From: a virus | Virus record (IMG/VR): IMGVR_UViG_3300038468_000075 | Span: 1-26,111 of that record | Direction: 5' to 3' (one strand) | Length of the DNA stretch: 26,111 nucleotides | Shown here: one piece after another, positions 12,866 through 25,627 of the stretch | Position numbering within the stretch: the stretch's first letter is position 1 | Layout: each line of letters starts with the position of its first letter | Translations under genes and position numbers: made by a program | Notes under the pieces: model-generated | The model's database searches: none | Told to the model about the DNA's origin: nothing | What the model saw: only the letters and a program-made list of their open reading frames with translations

Positions 12866-13636
12866 ATGAAGTTCTCCCTAGACGTATTGCTTAAATGGCT
12901 GCACGCCGCTTCCGCTCTGGCCATCATCGCCTTCATGGTGGCCGCAACCGCAGTCCTGCTTCAAATCAATGCCCGGATCGATCATTCCGCACAGTCACTT
13001 GATCAGGTTTCAGCTAATCTCAACAGCTACATCGATCCCAAAAATCCACGCGGATTCTCTGGCGTGCTGGCCAACACCAATGCCGTCCTGGTGCAACTTG
13101 GCCTGAGCGCCGATGAATGGCGGAGAGCTTCCCTAAACCAAAGAGAATACTGGGACAAGTCAGCAAAGGACGCGGCGGCGGCGGTAGCCAAAGCCAACGT
13201 CGTGTTGACAGACCTGCACGATACCATGCTCTCAACCCGCTCCCTGATCGAGCATTCCGACCACAATATCAACAGTGAATTGTTGCCAAAACTCTCAGCA
13301 GTACTGGAGCAATCCGGACGCAACCTACAAGTCCTGACCGATCAAACCAACCAAAACATGAAAGTGCTTCAATCGATCCTAGAGCATTCCGATCAACTAG
13401 CTAGAGATGAAAACGTCAAGAAGATGGTAGCGGAACTCGCTGGCAGCACCGAGGAATTGCATAAGGGGACAGCAGAAGTAGCTGAAACCATGGGGTATAT
13501 CCGGGATATGTTCAAGCCCACCAAGGCCAGCTTCTGGCACAACCTAACCAGTCAAGCTATCCCTACCGCGTTACGAGTCCTGATTCCTGGGGCCACTCGC
13601 GTCACCAACACCCCGACCGTGAAAACCGTCCAATGA
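12866..13636 (+). CDS. Membrane-anchored coiled-coil protein
   Basis: 256 residues. A basic-flanked membrane helix (about 10-33, WLHAASALAIIAFMVAATAV) follows a short cytoplasmic N-terminus. Nearly all of the rest is predicted helix with heptad-like patterns and many Gln/Asn/Ser residues, e.g. LDQVSANLNSYID, STRSLIEHSDHNINSEL and QILEHSDQLA-like repeats (IEHSDHN near 126, LEHSDQL near 173). The C-terminus is basic and Thr-rich. The layout resembles MCP or DUF948-type anchored coiled coils. Its stop overlaps the cREC start (ATGA), so the two are one operon, probably with leaderless translation of this gene. Confidence 0.6.
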   Translation: MKFSLDVLLKWLHAASALAIIAFMVAATAVLLQINARIDHSAQSLDQVSANLNSYIDPKNPRGFSGVLANTNAVLVQLGLSADEWRRASLNQREYWDKSAKDAAAAVAKANVVLTDLHDTMLSTRSLIEHSDHNINSELLPKLSAVLEQSGRNLQVLTDQTNQNMKVLQSILEHSDQLARDENVKKMVAELAGSTEELHKGTAEVAETMGYIRDMFKPTKASFWHNLTSQAIPTALRVLIPGATRVTNTPTVKTVQ

Positions 13637-14004
13637 TCAAGCTATTTTTGGACGATACCCGCGATCCCTGGGAGCATGGCCGGTGCGGCTGGACTTGGGT
13701 GAAAACCGTTGAAGAGGCGATCAAGCTGTTGCAATCGGGAGAAGTCTGGTGCGCTTCACTTGATCACGACCTGACGCCGATGGCCTCGATGGGCTTCTGG
13801 GAGGATCAGAAGACGGGCCTTGATGTCCTGATCTGGATGTGGAAAAACCAATCTTGGCCGGAAGGAGGAGTACAGATTCATTCCCAGAACCCCCTTGGAT
13901 CGGCCAGAATGCTAGGATTCCTGCGAACCCATTCACCCTACTGGCGCGAGCGGAATTCGATGACTAAATCCATCCCCAATACACTTGCGAAGCGTTCCAG
14001 TTGA
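13633..14004 (+). CDS. Cyclic-phosphate-processing receiver-like (cREC) protein
   Basis: 123 residues. The motifs match the cREC family: LFLDDTRDP at the N-terminus, W..V.....A...L, then SLDHDLTPM near 44-52, TGLDVLIWMW, and IHSQNPLGSARM near 83-94. cREC domains are known from comparative genomics as receiver-fold proteins predicted to process cyclic-phosphate RNA ends, and they travel with RNA repair genes. That fits the Ro60 gene and structured RNAs just downstream. The start overlaps the upstream stop (ATGA). The last 67 bases overlap the convergent regulator gene, and the segment after about residue 105 may be non-conserved. Confidence 0.75.
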   Translation: MIKLFLDDTRDPWEHGRCGWTWVKTVEEAIKLLQSGEVWCASLDHDLTPMASMGFWEDQKTGLDVLIWMWKNQSWPEGGVQIHSQNPLGSARMLGFLRTHSPYWRERNSMTKSIPNTLAKRSS

Positions 14005-14731: not shown

Positions 14732-14841
14732 AGTAGCCCGTAAGGGTTGCGATTCGGTTCGAATCCGAAAGGCCCCCCAAGAAAAATCTCACGGGGGCCT
14801 TGGACGCCGGTTCGACTTGCGCCATTGAAGTTGCGGCTACT
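14732..14841 (+). ncRNA. Third tRNA-like RNA, T arm and closed acceptor helix
   Basis: AGTAGCC (14732-14738) pairs with GGCTACT (14835-14841). Inside are a T arm TTCGG-TTCGAAT-CCGAA and an 8-bp helix AGGCCCCC/GGGGGCCT (14770-14777 with 14793-14800) with a 15-nt loop, in the same T-then-acceptor order as the permuted RNA upstream. A weak D arm (CGC...GCG, loop containing CGGTT) follows. The outer stem competes with a local hairpin GCTAC-TCCG-GTAGC. It ends before the preferred Ro60 start codon. The call is weaker than for the previous two. Confidence 0.5.
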
Positions 14842-14922
14842 CCGGTAGCTTACATGTCACCATCTTTCAATTGGTCCGACAGCCAATTGCATCCGGGACT
14901 TGCCGCACTAAAAGGAGCGACA

Positions 14923-16413
14923 GTGAAGAAAGAAACCGGGGTCCAAAAGACCCAAATCATCGCCGAACTCTCGCGGTCGGCGCATGGAAAGCTGGCCGAA
15001 TATGTGCCCATGGGACAGATTGCGGCCAAACAGGAGCCGGAATTCCTGGCGCACCTAATTGCCTGGAACCGCAAGAAAGGACAGATCCGGGACTCCAAGG
15101 TGGCCCTTCCGGTGGTATCTCTCGCCACGCGAGAGTTCCCGCAAGAATTCGTCGAGAATTCCCTCGCGCATCTCTCGCTGCTAGATCCGCGCAATCTGGT
15201 ACGGGCGCTGCGTTTTGCCAAGGAGATCAAACTGCCGGGGCGGGCGAAACTTCTGGATCGGGTGATCGGAAACTACCTAAAGACGCTCGAATCGAACTGG
15301 GCGCGTTGGGAAAGGACCGCCGTACAGCATCGCAAGAAGCTAAAGGAACTGTACGCCCTGACCCACGCCAAGCCTTCCGCCATGGCGGATCTCATTCTAT
15401 TCAAGGGAGATAAGCCTAAAGGGACGGTATTTGAAGCCATCGCCAACCTCAAGAATATGTCGGTCCAGGAAGCCGCCTCCGAGATCATGGATCGCAAGAT
15501 CCCCTTTCTGGTCGCCACGGGAGCCTTGGGCGAAAAACGGAAAGATCCCGACCTCGTGTTGGCGCTCATCAACCGTATGACGCCCACAGAATTGGTGACC
15601 AACACCAAGCTGCTGGAGCGCCTAGGAGTGAAATCCAACGCGGCGCTGCGGGCAGCCTACGAATCGGCGCTGGAGAAGGCATCGAAAAGCAAGAAAGTCA
15701 CCTTCAAAACCACGCGGGCGGCAGAAGCCATCGGCGATGAGGTTCTGAGCAAGAAGCTGGATAGCCTTCAGGAGCGGCAGATTAAGACCCTTGGCGGCAT
15801 CGAAGGCAACTGGCTAGTGCTCGGCGATAAGTCCGGTTCCATGAGTGTGGCCATCGAAGCATCTCGCATGATCGCATCCACCCTGGCCAAGTTGGTCCAG
15901 GGAGAGGTGCATTTGGTATTCTTCGATGTTTATCCGCGCTACATAGAGGTTACGGGCAAGACTTACAGTGAACTTAGCGCCTCGACTAAGCACGTCAGGG
16001 CTTGCGGCGGAACTTCCATCGGCTGCGGCTTGCAGTATGCAATCGATAATGGTCTTGAAATCAACGGTATAGCTGTAATTTCGGACGGCGGAGAGAACAA
16101 TCCTCCGTACTTCTACAACGTTTACAAGAAGTATGCTGAAAACACAGGCGTTGAGCCCACGGTTTACCTGTACCGACTGAGCGGTGATTCGGAGGATGTT
16201 TTCTCCGAAACGCTCGTGCGGGCCGGGATCGATTGCCAGAAGTTTGATCTGAGCGGCAGCAACGTAGACTACTACTCGCTGCCCAATCTGATCAAGACCA
16301 TGCGAACATCGCGTTACTCGCTGATCGACGAGATCATGGAGACGCCGCTACTGGAGTTGAAAGATGTCTTCGCCCAGAAGAAAGAGGAGGTTGAACATGC
16401 TGGAATTGGATGA
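14923..16413 (+). CDS. Ro60/TROVE-domain RNA-binding protein
   Basis: 496 residues from GTG 14923, chosen because AAAAGGAG lies 5 nt before it. ATG 14854 is in frame but has no ribosome site, and upstream starts run into the structured RNA. The N-terminal helical-repeat ring of the TROVE domain includes a helix ending LYALTHAKPSAMADLIL near 143-158, matching the HxKP-type motif of Ro60. The C-terminal von Willebrand A domain keeps the MIDAS residues D302-K-S304-G-S306, T364 (GGTSIGCG) and D388 (SDGGEN). Ro60 proteins bind Y RNAs and misfolded RNA ends and, in bacteria, work with exonucleases in RNA quality control. The structured RNAs just upstream are likely partners. Confidence 0.9.
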   Translation: MKKETGVQKTQIIAELSRSAHGKLAEYVPMGQIAAKQEPEFLAHLIAWNRKKGQIRDSKVALPVVSLATREFPQEFVENSLAHLSLLDPRNLVRALRFAKEIKLPGRAKLLDRVIGNYLKTLESNWARWERTAVQHRKKLKELYALTHAKPSAMADLILFKGDKPKGTVFEAIANLKNMSVQEAASEIMDRKIPFLVATGALGEKRKDPDLVLALINRMTPTELVTNTKLLERLGVKSNAALRAAYESALEKASKSKKVTFKTTRAAEAIGDEVLSKKLDSLQERQIKTLGGIEGNWLVLGDKSGSMSVAIEASRMIASTLAKLVQGEVHLVFFDVYPRYIEVTGKTYSELSASTKHVRACGGTSIGCGLQYAIDNGLEINGIAVISDGGENNPPYFYNVYKKYAENTGVEPTVYLYRLSGDSEDVFSETLVRAGIDCQKFDLSGSNVDYYSLPNLIKTMRTSRYSLIDEIMETPLLELKDVFAQKKEEVEHAGIG

Positions 16414-19371: not shown

Positions 19372-19998
19372 TCACAGTTTCAGAAACGTATGGTTTCCGA
19401 TCTTCATGGTCACCTTGGACGAGTCAAGCCAATTCGGCCTGCCTGCGTTCGGGTTCAGATAATGATTGGCCCCATGGGTGAGATCATCCGAGGCCAGACT
19501 CAAATGCTTAGATTTCATCCAGGCTACACAGGAAGACTTCCAACTCTCATCGCCAGTGGCAGTAGGGAAAAGGACCGAATTGGGATCTCCCAAATTGAAG
19601 CAGGAGAACTGCTTGGCCTGCAAACAGACATTGGATGCGGAATCCGGCCAGCGGGGATCTTTCATGCGGTTCCGGATTACCATGGCAACTGCAAGCCTAC
19701 CATCCGGTGGCTCTCCACGCGCTTCGCGCCAGACAGTCAGAGCAGCGATGAAATCATCGTATAAATCCATAAAACCAATAGATGGTGGCCCTGGAGGAGC
19801 CATGGCCACCAGTACAATCTGTTTGAGAATTTCATCTCCGGTCCTGGAAAGCCAATCCTCGAAGCTTTGCTTGATCGAGTCCTTGACTAACTCTGTTAGA
19901 TTTACGTGATGCTCTAAAATCCAGGAAGTCCAAGCGTCGGACACTCCCAGCCGTATGCCTAGGACATTCGGAGCATTTTCACTATCTTTTTTGGCCAT
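19372..19998 (-). CDS. SleB-type cell wall hydrolase (candidate endolysin)
   Basis: 208 residues, GGAAGG before the ATG. The catalytic domain (about 88-200) carries the Hydrolase_2/SleB signature: LTVWREARGEPPDGRLAVAM then VIRNRMKDP, followed by QAKQFSCFNLGDPN and a late segment with DDLTHGANHYLNP. The Glu of REARGE is the expected catalytic residue of this lysozyme-like fold. The N-terminal 80 residues have a helix and a hydrophobic Pro/Gly segment (VLVAMAPPGPPS) but no clear signal peptide. It should cut peptidoglycan glycan strands for host lysis, with the membrane protein across the array a likely holin. Confidence 0.8.
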   Translation of the reverse strand: MAKKDSENAPNVLGIRLGVSDAWTSWILEHHVNLTELVKDSIKQSFEDWLSRTGDEILKQIVLVAMAPPGPPSIGFMDLYDDFIAALTVWREARGEPPDGRLAVAMVIRNRMKDPRWPDSASNVCLQAKQFSCFNLGDPNSVLFPTATGDESWKSSCVAWMKSKHLSLASDDLTHGANHYLNPNAGRPNWLDSSKVTMKIGNHTFLKL

Positions 19999-20045: not shown

Positions 20046-20064
20046 AGGAGCGGATTACGCTCCT
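20046..20064. other. Hairpin at the left edge of the array
   Basis: AGGAGCG and CGCTCCT form a perfect 7-bp stem around GATTA, 36 nt before the first array unit and just upstream of the lysin start. No T-run follows. It could mark an RNA end or processing point for the array transcript. Confidence 0.35.
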
Positions 20065-20099
20065 AGCGCTCCGCACATTTGAATACCATCTTTGTCCTT

Positions 20100-21458
20100 G
20101 GCTCGCTCACGCCTCACGAAACATTCCTTGGCAGTGGCTCGCTCACTTCAGATGAAACATTCGTTCATTTTGGCTCGCTCCCAATTTCTGAAACCTTCTC
20201 TTCCAATGGCTCGCTCATCTACAATGGAACGTTAAGCGCTGCTGGCTCGCTCGCTTCTCATGAAACATTCTCGACTTTTGGCTCGCTCCCACCTGATGAA
20301 ACCATCTGCCACTTTGGCTCGCTCATCTATCTTGAAGCATTCTGTGCCAATGGCTCGCTCAATTCCAGTGAAACCTTCACTCTTATTGACTAACTCATGC
20401 TCGCTGAAACCTTACCGCTCCATGGTTCGCTCACTACTGCTGAAACATTCTCTACCAATGGCTCGCTCACGCATCATGAAACATACATGCTCAATGGCTC
20501 GCTCTATCTACATGAAACAGTCATTTTGTACGGCTCACTCACTCGCAATGAAACATTCCGCTGAAATGGCTCGCTCACGCTTTATGAAACATTCTTCAGG
20601 CATGGCTCGCTCACATCTGTTGAAACATTCCATCGACATGGCTCGCTCGCTTCTCATGAAACATTCCCGATCAATGGCTCGCTCACAGCATGTGAAACAT
20701 TCCCCGTCAATGACTCGCTAACATCTATCGAAACCTTCCCCGTCATTGGCTCGTTCTATAATCATGAAACATTAGACTCTCTTGACTCGCTCGCGTGGCG
20801 TGAAACTTTCACGTGAAATGGCTCGCTCACAGGTCATGAAACATTCTTTTGGAATGGCTCGCTCTGAACTCGTGAAACATTCACATCCAATGGCTCGCCC
20901 TTGCAGTTTGAAACATTCCTCCGGCTTGGCTCGCTCCTGCATATGAAACATTCAGATCCTATGGCTCGCTCGCTTTTCGTGAAACATTCTTTCTTCTTGG
21001 TTCGCTCCTGCAACTTGAAACATTCGGCTTCACTGGCTCGCTTCCCCCGTATGAAACATTCAGATCCTATGGCTCGCTCCGAATATCTGAAACATTCACT
21101 CGCCTTGGCTCGCTCTCGTGGCTTGAAACATTCCTGAGTCTTGGCTCGCTCACTTTTGCAGAACATTCTCGCTCCGTAGCTCGCTCACATCGCAATGAAA
21201 CATTCCCCAGCACTGGCTCGCTCTGCCATCATGAAACATTCACGATCAATGGCTCGTTCGCACCACGTGAAACATTTCCGATCTCTGGCTCGCTCGCTTA
21301 TCGTGAAACATTCACGCGAAATGGCTCGCTCAGATCTGTCGAAACATTCCCCAATACTGGCTCGCTCACTCGGCATGAAATATTCTCATTCGATGGCTCG
21401 CTCAACTTTTTTGGAACATTCCCCGAACGTGGCTCGCTCCATATCTATCGAAACATTC
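20100..21458 (-). repeat. TIGR-like array, 38 units of 36 bp with two boxes and two variable 9-mers
   Basis: Each unit, read on the plus strand, is box A GGCTCGCTC, 9 variable nt, box B GAAACATTC, 9 variable nt. The start-to-start distance is 36 throughout, except 35 at units 24-25 and a 35/37 pair around unit 31. Box A is perfect in about 27 of 38 units and box B in about 23; the most degenerate copies lie at the left end. Variable 9-mers differ between units, usually ending in T. The layout matches the TIGR arrays found in phages and parasitic bacteria, which yield 36-nt guides with two short spacers used by Nop-domain Tas proteins. Flanking genes read leftward, so leftward transcription is assumed. 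No Tas gene is seen here. Confidence 0.8.
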
Positions 21459-21674
21459 TCATACCTTACCTAAATACCGAATCACGAAATACAGCCATCC
21501 CGGCATACCCAACATGAAGATAGCCGCTAAAATCATGAGCAGGAAGTCCTTGACTCGCAGTTCGCCATAGCGGCTAGCCTGCCTTCCAACGCTATCTATC
21601 AAAAAGTAGAGCATGACCGGAATGCTCCAGCAGATCATGGTAACGATAATTACTAGAGTCGTGGATGAGCCCAT
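21459..21674 (-). CDS. Two-helix membrane protein, candidate holin
   Basis: 71 residues with two membrane helices (LVIIVTMICWSIPVMLYFLI at about 7-26 and FLLMILAAIFMLGMPGWLYF at about 44-63) joined by a basic loop (GRQASRYGELRVKD). Size, two helices and proximity to the SleB-type lysin fit a class II holin, which would let the lysin reach the cell wall. Its stop codon directly abuts the last box of the array, so array and gene share a boundary with no spare base. Confidence 0.6.
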   Translation of the reverse strand: MGSSTTLVIIVTMICWSIPVMLYFLIDSVGRQASRYGELRVKDFLLMILAAIFMLGMPGWLYFVIRYLGKV

Positions 21675-25222: not shown

Positions 25223-25627
25223 ATGGAAAGCCCTAGAAGAGTTATTGTCAGCCGCCACGCGGCTGCCATAGCTTTTATCCGGAACCGTGCTCCGGAGTTT
25301 GCGGACGCCGAGGTAATCGCGTCCGCCGCCCCCATTGATGTGATGGGGGCTATTGTAGCGGGAAATATCCCGCTACACTTAGCGGCGTTGGCCGAAGAAG
25401 TCATCGCCGTTGAATTCGACGGCCCGCCCCCACGCGGGGCCGAGTACGGACTCCCCGAGATGGAAGCGGCTGGAGCCCGCCTTGCCCGATATCGGGTCGA
25501 GTCGCTCGACGAGGACCCCAATTGCCCCTCTTGTCAAGGGGAGGGGTACATTGTTGACTACGAAAACGGTGACCACCTCTGCGGCATCTGCGGCGGTACT
25601 GGCCGCACAGAGGCCGCAAAATCTTGA
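25223..25627 (+). CDS. Csx16-like protein fused to a DnaJ-type zinc motif
   Basis: 134 residues, GGAGG 5 nt before the ATG. Residues 5-95 follow the Csx16 (Cas_VVA1548) pattern: VIVSRHAAAIAFIRNRAPEF, a middle GAIVAGNIPLHLAALAEEV, then PPRGAEYGLPEMEAAGARLA and RYRVES. The C-terminus adds two CxxCxGxG units, C101-PSC104-QGEG and C120-GIC123-GGTG, as in the DnaJ zinc domain. Csx16 proteins accompany type III CRISPR systems, and members have been reported as ring nucleases that degrade cyclic oligoadenylate. In a phage such a protein could blunt type III immunity. No CRISPR genes lie nearby. Confidence 0.65.
   Translation: MESPRRVIVSRHAAAIAFIRNRAPEFADAEVIASAAPIDVMGAIVAGNIPLHLAALAEEVIAVEFDGPPPRGAEYGLPEMEAAGARLARYRVESLDEDPNCPSCQGEGYIVDYENGDHLCGICGGTGRTEAAKS

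What the first reader, a model, noticed from the sequence alone, without database searches (positions are those of the whole stretch)
20100..21458. A 38-unit array of 36 bp with two constant 9-mers and two variable 9-mers: a TIGR-like guide array in a phage
Seen: GGCTCGCTC and GAAACATTC alternate at 18-bp steps for about 1.36 kb with nearly every variable 9-mer different. Boxes are conserved at every position, including codon-wobble positions, so selection acts on DNA or RNA. Known: TIGR arrays of phages and parasitic bacteria give 36-nt tigRNAs with two short guides used by Tas (Nop-domain) proteins. Inference: this is such an array, with up to 76 short guide segments.
Basis: partly seen in the sequence, partly recalled or inferred. 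Interest (0 to 1): 0.95.

Follow-up and report, generated by a model that had tools for sequence, protein, structure and literature searches.

The report
Phage TIGR guide-RNA array
A bacterial virus carries a 38-unit array of paired short guide sequences belonging to the recently described TIGR-Tas RNA-guided system, one of three arrays that appear to serve a single nuclease-free guide-binding protein encoded about 19,000 bases away.

Summary
In detail: window 20099-21458 holds 38 units of 36 bp, two constant boxes alternating with two variable segments. Repeats are 10 nt and spacers 8 nt. The likely transcript is the window's minus strand: edge GAGCGAGCCA, loop GAATGTTTCA. No Tas gene was found in the window, but the window equals part of a 95,392-bp phage record (6 of 26,111 bases differ) with two more arrays of the same repeats. 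Between those lies a 311-aa protein matching TasR (E 9.7e-15) and TasH; its predicted fold aligns best to TasH/TasR tigRNA complexes (Z 17.2-18.5). No nuclease domain was seen, so it is a TasA. Of 79 phage relatives, 76 gave parsed array chains (some weak), all on the tas strand. It is a new member of a known system. Less expected: the array is 18.9 kb from tasA, arrays more than 5 kb from tas occur in 6 of 15 long records, and guide sets often differ between phages with near-identical tasA. Targets were not found; a terminase lead was not upheld by controls. Processing and function are inferred from the published system.

The parts
20099..21458 (-). TIGR array 3 of this phage: 38 parsed units of 36 bp; transcript-strand edge GAGCGAGCCA, spacer A 8 nt, loop GAATGTTTCA, spacer B 8 nt
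   Evidence: same repeats flank tasA in the 95-kb record
21449..21458 (-). first loop repeat; starts directly after the TGA stop (21459-21461) of the upstream ORF
20067..20098 (-). degenerate last unit: spacer AGGACAAA, loop-like GATGGTATTCA, spacer AATGTGCG, 3'-truncated edge GAGCG
   Evidence: read by eye; not counted in the 38
20047..20063 (-). 6-bp hairpin GGAGCG-TAATC-CGCTCC just after the array; no T tract, so not a classical terminator
   Evidence: read by eye; the terminator scan did not report it
21459..21674 (-). 71-aa ORF upstream of the array on the transcript strand
   Evidence: no Pfam or PHROG match
19372..19998 (-). cell-wall hydrolase (Hydrolase_2), the next gene downstream on the same strand
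20280..20315 (-). unit 6: both of its 8-nt guides also occur as a pair in array 1 next to tasA; the only pair identical in two places among 79 units with two 8-nt spacers

Best explanation
A TIGR guide-RNA array of a tailed phage that uses a nuclease-free TasA. SHOWN: dual-repeat 36-bp array; two sibling arrays with the same repeats flanking a TasA gene in the same phage record; the edge pairing signature; position directly between minus-strand genes. INFERRED from the published system (PMC12045711): the array is transcribed on the window's minus strand with its neighbours and, with TasA present, cut inside each edge repeat (GAGCG|AGCCA) into 36-nt tigRNAs AGCCA-A8-GAAUGUUUCA-B8-GAGCG; a TasA dimer holds one tigRNA; spacer A pairs with one DNA strand and spacer B with the other at adjacent sites, opening and bending the target. 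INFERRED further by me: with no nuclease, TasA most likely blocks transcription or replication of rival mobile DNA (a role the paper also suggests), and the distant array feeds the same TasA in trans, giving about 80 guides in all.
For: Array anatomy. Window identical to G001 except 6 of 26,111 bases, none in the array. TasA between arrays 1 and 2: PDB TasR 9mty E 9.7e-15, TasH 5.9e-9; profile of 23 sequences 4.7e-25 and 6.1e-14; AF2 pLDDT 86.8, pTM 0.85; Foldseek ranks 1-11 are TasH/TasR chains; VIA Z 17.2-18.5 for TasH/TasR, 12.4-12.7 for IS110-family recombinases, next entry 8.2. Known TIGR phage Salicola CGphi29 has edge AAGCGAGCCA / loop AAGACAACCA, 36-bp units, same strand as TasH. 76 of 79 relatives' loci gave a parsed chain on the tas strand, 0 on the other (some chains weak, e.g. 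L087). Edge pairs 3-8 and 4-7 covary across 12 edge consensus types (Watson-Crick in 9 and 10 of 12; column-shuffle P 0.015 and 0.0026); in this phage 79/82 (3-8) and 76/82 (4-7) parsed edges pair, G-U counted. Truncated edge ...AGCCA at the start of arrays 1 and 2.
Against: No Tas gene found in the window itself (Pfam on 40 ORFs); PF01798 matches none of the three records. Foldseek TM-scores to TasH/TasR are moderate (query-normalised 0.43-0.57). This array is 18.9 kb from tasA. No promoter-like site by the array, and the one terminator-like site lies upstream of it, fewer than chance in both cases. No target found in the phage itself or in other phages beyond borderline excesses. RNA expression and processing untested. 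Spacers show a positional bias (G at position 7 in 55% of A and 65% of B) that the model does not explain.
Confidence: 0.93

Rival explanations
1. Remote array 3 is a decaying, unused TIGR array; only arrays 1 and 2 next to tasA work.
For: 18.9 kb from tasA; degenerate last unit; 11 of 38 edge boxes differ from consensus.
Against: It is the longest of the three, with 27 of 38 exact edge boxes and length faults in 4 of 38 V1. Arrays more than 5 kb from tas are seen in 6 of 15 long records. One guide pair is identical in arrays 1 and 3.
Confidence: 0.08
2. A protein-coding 12-residue repeat or low-complexity DNA, not guides.
For: The period is 36 bp, and a real 36-bp-period coding repeat exists elsewhere in this phage (G001 4106-5521).
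Against: 6-31 stops in every frame, off-length units, conservation at all box positions, same repeats beside tasA.
Confidence: 0.01
3. Guides bind the phage's own genome (self-regulation, packaging or segregation) rather than rivals.
For: The array lies beside a cell-wall hydrolase and a tail-protein-like gene; published TasA loci are sometimes joined to parB-like genes (PMC12045711).
Against: No composite target with 0 or 1 mismatch in its own 95 kb; 2-3 mismatch counts equal shuffled pairs. No ParB match among 6 ORFs around tasA.
Confidence: 0.1

Closest known systems
TIGR-TasH of Salicola phage CGphi29 (SpTIGR; PMC12045711)
   Same: 10-nt repeats with 8-nt spacers, 36-bp unit, near-identical edge (AAGCGAGCCA against GAGCGAGCCA), array on the tas strand, tailed phage
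   Different: Tas there carries HNH; one array of about 11 units in the stretch read; ends in a terminator-like hairpin with a T tract (read by eye)
TIGR-TasA-like dual-repeat systems of uncultured phages (L015-L093 here)
   Same: Tas protein 43-56% identical (best segment), same edge/loop grammar, mostly 8-nt spacers
   Different: Loop GAATGTTTCA is unusual beside the commoner GAGAGNACCA types
IS110-family recombinases (IS621, ISCro4) with bridge RNA
   Same: RNA-binding fold of TasA (VIA Z 12.4-12.7; Pfam Transposase_20 1.8e-5)
   Different: No N-terminal catalytic domain seen (311 aa; TasA aligns from its residue 25 to residue 125 on of the recombinase); array of guides instead of one bridge RNA
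CRISPR-Cas
   Same: array of variable guides
   Different: 10-nt alternating repeats; no cas effector or adaptation gene among the 40 window ORFs scanned with Pfam, only a Csx16-like protein

Membership tests
TIGR-Tas (dual-repeat) | two alternating repeats of 8-12 nt with short spacers (9 nt as a rule; 16 nt of variable sequence in SpTIGR) | tested here: met
   10-nt repeats, 8-nt spacers, 36-bp unit (paper)
TIGR-Tas (dual-repeat) | box C / box D ends shared by edge and loop repeats | tested here: met
   here both begin GA and end YCA; shared ends in most relatives' consensus pairs, with exceptions such as GAACGAGTCA/GAGAGAACCA differing at the third-last base. The ends differ from the UG...CCA of TasR
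TIGR-Tas (dual-repeat) | extra covarying pair in the edge only | tested here: met
   pair 4-7: 76/82 edges but 16/82 loops in this phage; 10/12 edge types, P 0.0026; 2 of the 12 types look mis-assigned by the script
TIGR-Tas (dual-repeat) | Tas protein with Nop / IS110-like RNA-binding domain | tested here: met
   not found in the window; in the 95-kb record: 9mty 9.7e-15, fold Z 17.2-18.5. PF01798 itself not matched
[quoted passage not shown]
   arrays 1 and 2 flank tasA; the window's array is 18.9 kb away
TIGR-Tas (dual-repeat) | truncated edge at both ends, then a rho-independent terminator (typical, not universal) | tested here: inconclusive
   5'-truncated edge in arrays 1 and 2; in array 3 only a 3'-truncated edge-like element with a hairpin lacking a T tract
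TIGR-Tas (dual-repeat) | 36-nt tigRNAs cut in the edge and bound by Tas | not testable with these tools
   needs small-RNA sequencing
TIGR-Tas (dual-repeat) | tandem targeting of opposite DNA strands | not testable with these tools
   only a database target search was possible; no convincing excess over shuffled pairs
TasA subclass | no nuclease domain fused | tested here: met
   311 aa, Pfam above cut-off only Transposase_20; model without an extra N-terminal domain
CRISPR-Cas | single repeat of about 25-36 nt with cas genes | tested here: not met

The most novel reading that the evidence does not exclude
Some phages run a genome-wide TIGR guide library: one nuclease-free TasA is supplied in trans by several arrays scattered through the genome (about 60-87 guides), and whole guide units are gained and lost faster than tasA mutates, i.e. 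an adaptive, CRISPR-like guide store without known adaptation genes.
Probability: 0.5. Interest if true: 0.72.

Novelty: new member of a known kind. Interest (0 to 1): 0.55.

Why it matters
It places TIGR-TasA, whose biological role is open, in a 95-kb phage record with about 80 guides. It suggests that surveys limited to 5 kb around tas genes (the published method) miss arrays: 6 of 15 long records here have arrays further away. Closely related phages with different guide sets give natural material for asking how TIGR arrays gain guides, which the discovery paper lists as unsolved.

Tried and rejected
Self-targets: 82 parsed units against the own 95-kb record with arrays masked, four arrangements, 12 partner shuffles each: no excess.

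Targets in other phages: 1045 guides against 84 sequences (1.8 Mb) of mostly TIGR phages, 5 shuffles: a B|rc(A) gap-1 excess at one mismatch (60 against 41; exact 2 against 0.6) was matched by a similar excess in a mechanistically meaningless arrangement (55 against 42; exact 2 against 1.2), so not believed. 1042 guides against 201 other phage loci (drawn in by two bait guides, which were left out), 20 shuffles: small excesses at gap 0 in both arrangements, for B|rc(A) 382 guides against 346.6 (sd 15.3) at two mismatches and 42 against 45 at one, for rc(A)|B 59 against 47.7 (sd 6.3) at one; 57 guides of this phage 5 against 1.8 (sd 1.2) at one mismatch. 75 guides of this phage: 6 hit with up to 1 mismatch at gap 0 against 2.9 in 200 shuffles (P 0.045), one of the 6 being a mis-parsed end unit. 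Borderline at best over many tests; I do not claim targets.

Terminase lead: the guide pair present in two arrays spells a 16-mer found exactly in 60 viral stretches at gap 0 (10 and 11 at gaps 1 and 2), 41 of them one homologous family that I recognised from memory as a terminase large-subunit motif. In its favour, no other cluster in these scans is as large (next 15). Against it, two shuffled pairs also gave gap-0 hits (60 and 17) and another real pair gave 9 at gap 0 but 28 and 25 at gaps 1 and 2. Not upheld as evidence; left as a lead.

Spacer bias: G at position 7 and T at position 1 in this phage is not a general rule in relatives; unexplained. The single-sequence AF2 model was poor (pLDDT 37) and not used. 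L003/G002 has one isolated match and no array chain; taken as chance. The genome collection scan gave 2 weak relatives only. Rows left out: the structure alignment used 38 of 79 relatives; of those not used, 5 had a stop inside the matched stretch (L039, L043, L051, L052, L058). 3 of 79 loci gave no chain (L015, L059, L085), of which the record of L059 later gave one. In one search the 'one arm replaced' rows for L026/L030 are a one-base phase artefact.

Full report
OBSERVATION. The array is real. 76 boxes alternate at about 18 bp between 20100 and 21458, and the edge box occurs 27 times exactly against 0.53 expected. The base before each box is nearly always T, so on the strand I take as transcript (minus) the repeats are GAGCGAGCCA and GAATGTTTCA, 10 nt each, with 8-nt spacers. 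No frame is open through it. Tandem Repeats Finder sees the 36-bp period with only 64% matches, because the spacers differ.

CONTEXT. The window is itself a virus record (G000). It is 99.98% identical over its whole length to part of IMGVR_UViG_3300038410_000026, 95,392 bp; the 6 differences lie outside the array. The record is classed linear and its completeness is not known. It holds two further arrays with the same repeats, about 20 and 25 units, on either side of a 311-aa ORF. 82 units were parsed over the three arrays, two of which run into neighbouring genes, so I say about 80. In transcript orientation array 1 begins inside the last codons of tasA with a truncated edge (...AGCCATGA), array 2 begins at the stop of the ORF upstream of tasA with ...TAGCCA and ends about 20 nt before tasA, and array 3 begins directly after a TGA stop. 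All three lie between ORFs of the same strand.

THE PROTEIN. P0001 matches PDB TasR 9mty (9.7e-15) and TasH (5.9e-9), then IS621 (0.029); with a profile of 23 sequences 4.7e-25, 6.1e-14 and 1.1e-4. Pfam gives Transposase_20 (1.8e-5), PHROGs a 'transposase' family (4.2e-42). The Pfam Nop model does not match. AlphaFold on 39 aligned sequences gives pLDDT 86.8 and pTM 0.85. Foldseek's first 11 PDB chains are all TasH or TasR complexes, with moderate TM-scores of 0.43-0.57; VIA-align Z is 17.2-18.5 for these, 12.4-12.7 for IS110-family recombinases and 8.2 for the next entry. No fused nuclease is seen, so it is a TasA.

RELATIVES AND ORIENTATION. A three-sequence alignment brought 233 relatives in viral contigs, 80 kept, one of them G001 itself. 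Of the 79 others, 76 gave a parsed array chain, all on the tas strand and none on the opposite strand; some chains are weak. The known Salicola phage array has the same edge motif on the TasH strand. Spacers of 8 nt make up 1889 of the 2084 in the six commonest lengths (54 loci). Edge positions 3-8 and 4-7 covary (G-C, A-T, T-A; C-G, T-A), and 4-7 pairs in most edges but few loops, which resembles the extra edge pair of the TasR structure (PMC12045711).

ARRAYS FAR FROM TAS. In 15 long records (60-123 kb, of which 40-120 kb was held), chains scoring above 45 were mapped; three reversed records used as a null reached 27.4 at most. Arrays more than 5 kb from tas occur in 6 of 15 (G001, G004, G005, G006, G007, G012). 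Halving the parsed repeats gives about 83, 60, 70, 87 and 67 units for G004, G005, G006, G007 and G012, so this phage is among the largest but not the largest. Array 3 alone (38 units) is within the range of relatives (up to 47); the paper gives 5 to 15 as most common and surveyed 5 kb on either side of tas. I found no mention of distant arrays with the terms searched in that paper or in the library searches; its supplement was not read, and the other papers were seen only as listings.

TURNOVER. L017 and L018 have tas genes 99.4% identical but share 3 of 19 guide pairs; L089/L091 95.8% and 0 of 8; other pairs at 97.0-98.3% share 1 to 8 pairs. Against a simple clock, L064/L066 and L079/L084 (99.1%) share 14 of 14 and 23 of 23, and L018 shares all 23 with L019-L021 at 96.2%, which hints at recombination between tas and array. 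In 8 aligned pairs 46 units were the same, 202 unmatched, 20 changed by points and 19 otherwise. Part of the unmatched count reflects incomplete contigs and rearrangement.

TARGETS. Not found; see Tried and rejected. Host: among the 15 of 120 terminase matches listed, Tunturiibacter (acidobacterial) phages have the highest score, at 23.8% identity, a weak hint only.

MECHANISM. Shown: anatomy, the partner protein, repeat pairing signature, arrangement. Inferred from PMC12045711 (abstract, sections 4-10, 24 and the legends in 49 read): 36-nt tigRNAs, Tas dimer, tandem strand pairing. Inferred by me: silencing of rival DNA without cutting, and supply in trans from array 3.

Noticed in passing
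window 25223-25627 +: Csx16/Cas_VVA1548-like protein with a C-terminal zinc-ribbon-like part; from recall, Csx16 proteins are linked to type III CRISPR signalling, so it may be counter-defence.
   Followed up: no
window 13633-14004 +: cREC_REC 'cyclic-phosphate processing receiver' protein, Pfam 3.5e-23, in the same phage as the Csx16-like protein.
   Followed up: no
window 14800-16413 +: 537-aa protein resembling a TROVE/Ro60-type RNA-binding protein (label recalled): PHROG 850 'RNA-binding protein' 2.4e-7, weak VWA match.
   Followed up: partly
window 20099-21458 and arrays 1-2 in L004: Spacers are biased by position (G at position 7, T at position 1) well beyond letter-shuffled spacers; relatives do not share it as a rule.
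   Followed up: partly
L012 4703-5022: Microcystis phage Mvi-JY20 carries a TIGR-like array (ATGCGAGCC / CGAAACCC, 36-bp unit) beside a Tas-like gene annotated as hypothetical.
   Followed up: partly
L011 3848-4555: Mycobacterium phage BPBiebs31 gp74 'transposase' is a short Tas-like protein (31% over 112 aa) with no dual-repeat array seen nearby.
   Followed up: partly
L004 4106-5521 -: 471-aa protein with a DUF6745 domain and a 12-residue repeat (36-bp period in DNA, coding, not a TIGR array) near tasA.
   Followed up: no
L004 10537-11160 -: Cas4/PD-(D/E)XK-like exonuclease, about the third ORF upstream of tasA on its strand.
   Followed up: no
L004 6330-6430: Array 1 ends in a partial edge GAGCGAG that overlaps the region just before the start codon of the next ORF.
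   Followed up: no
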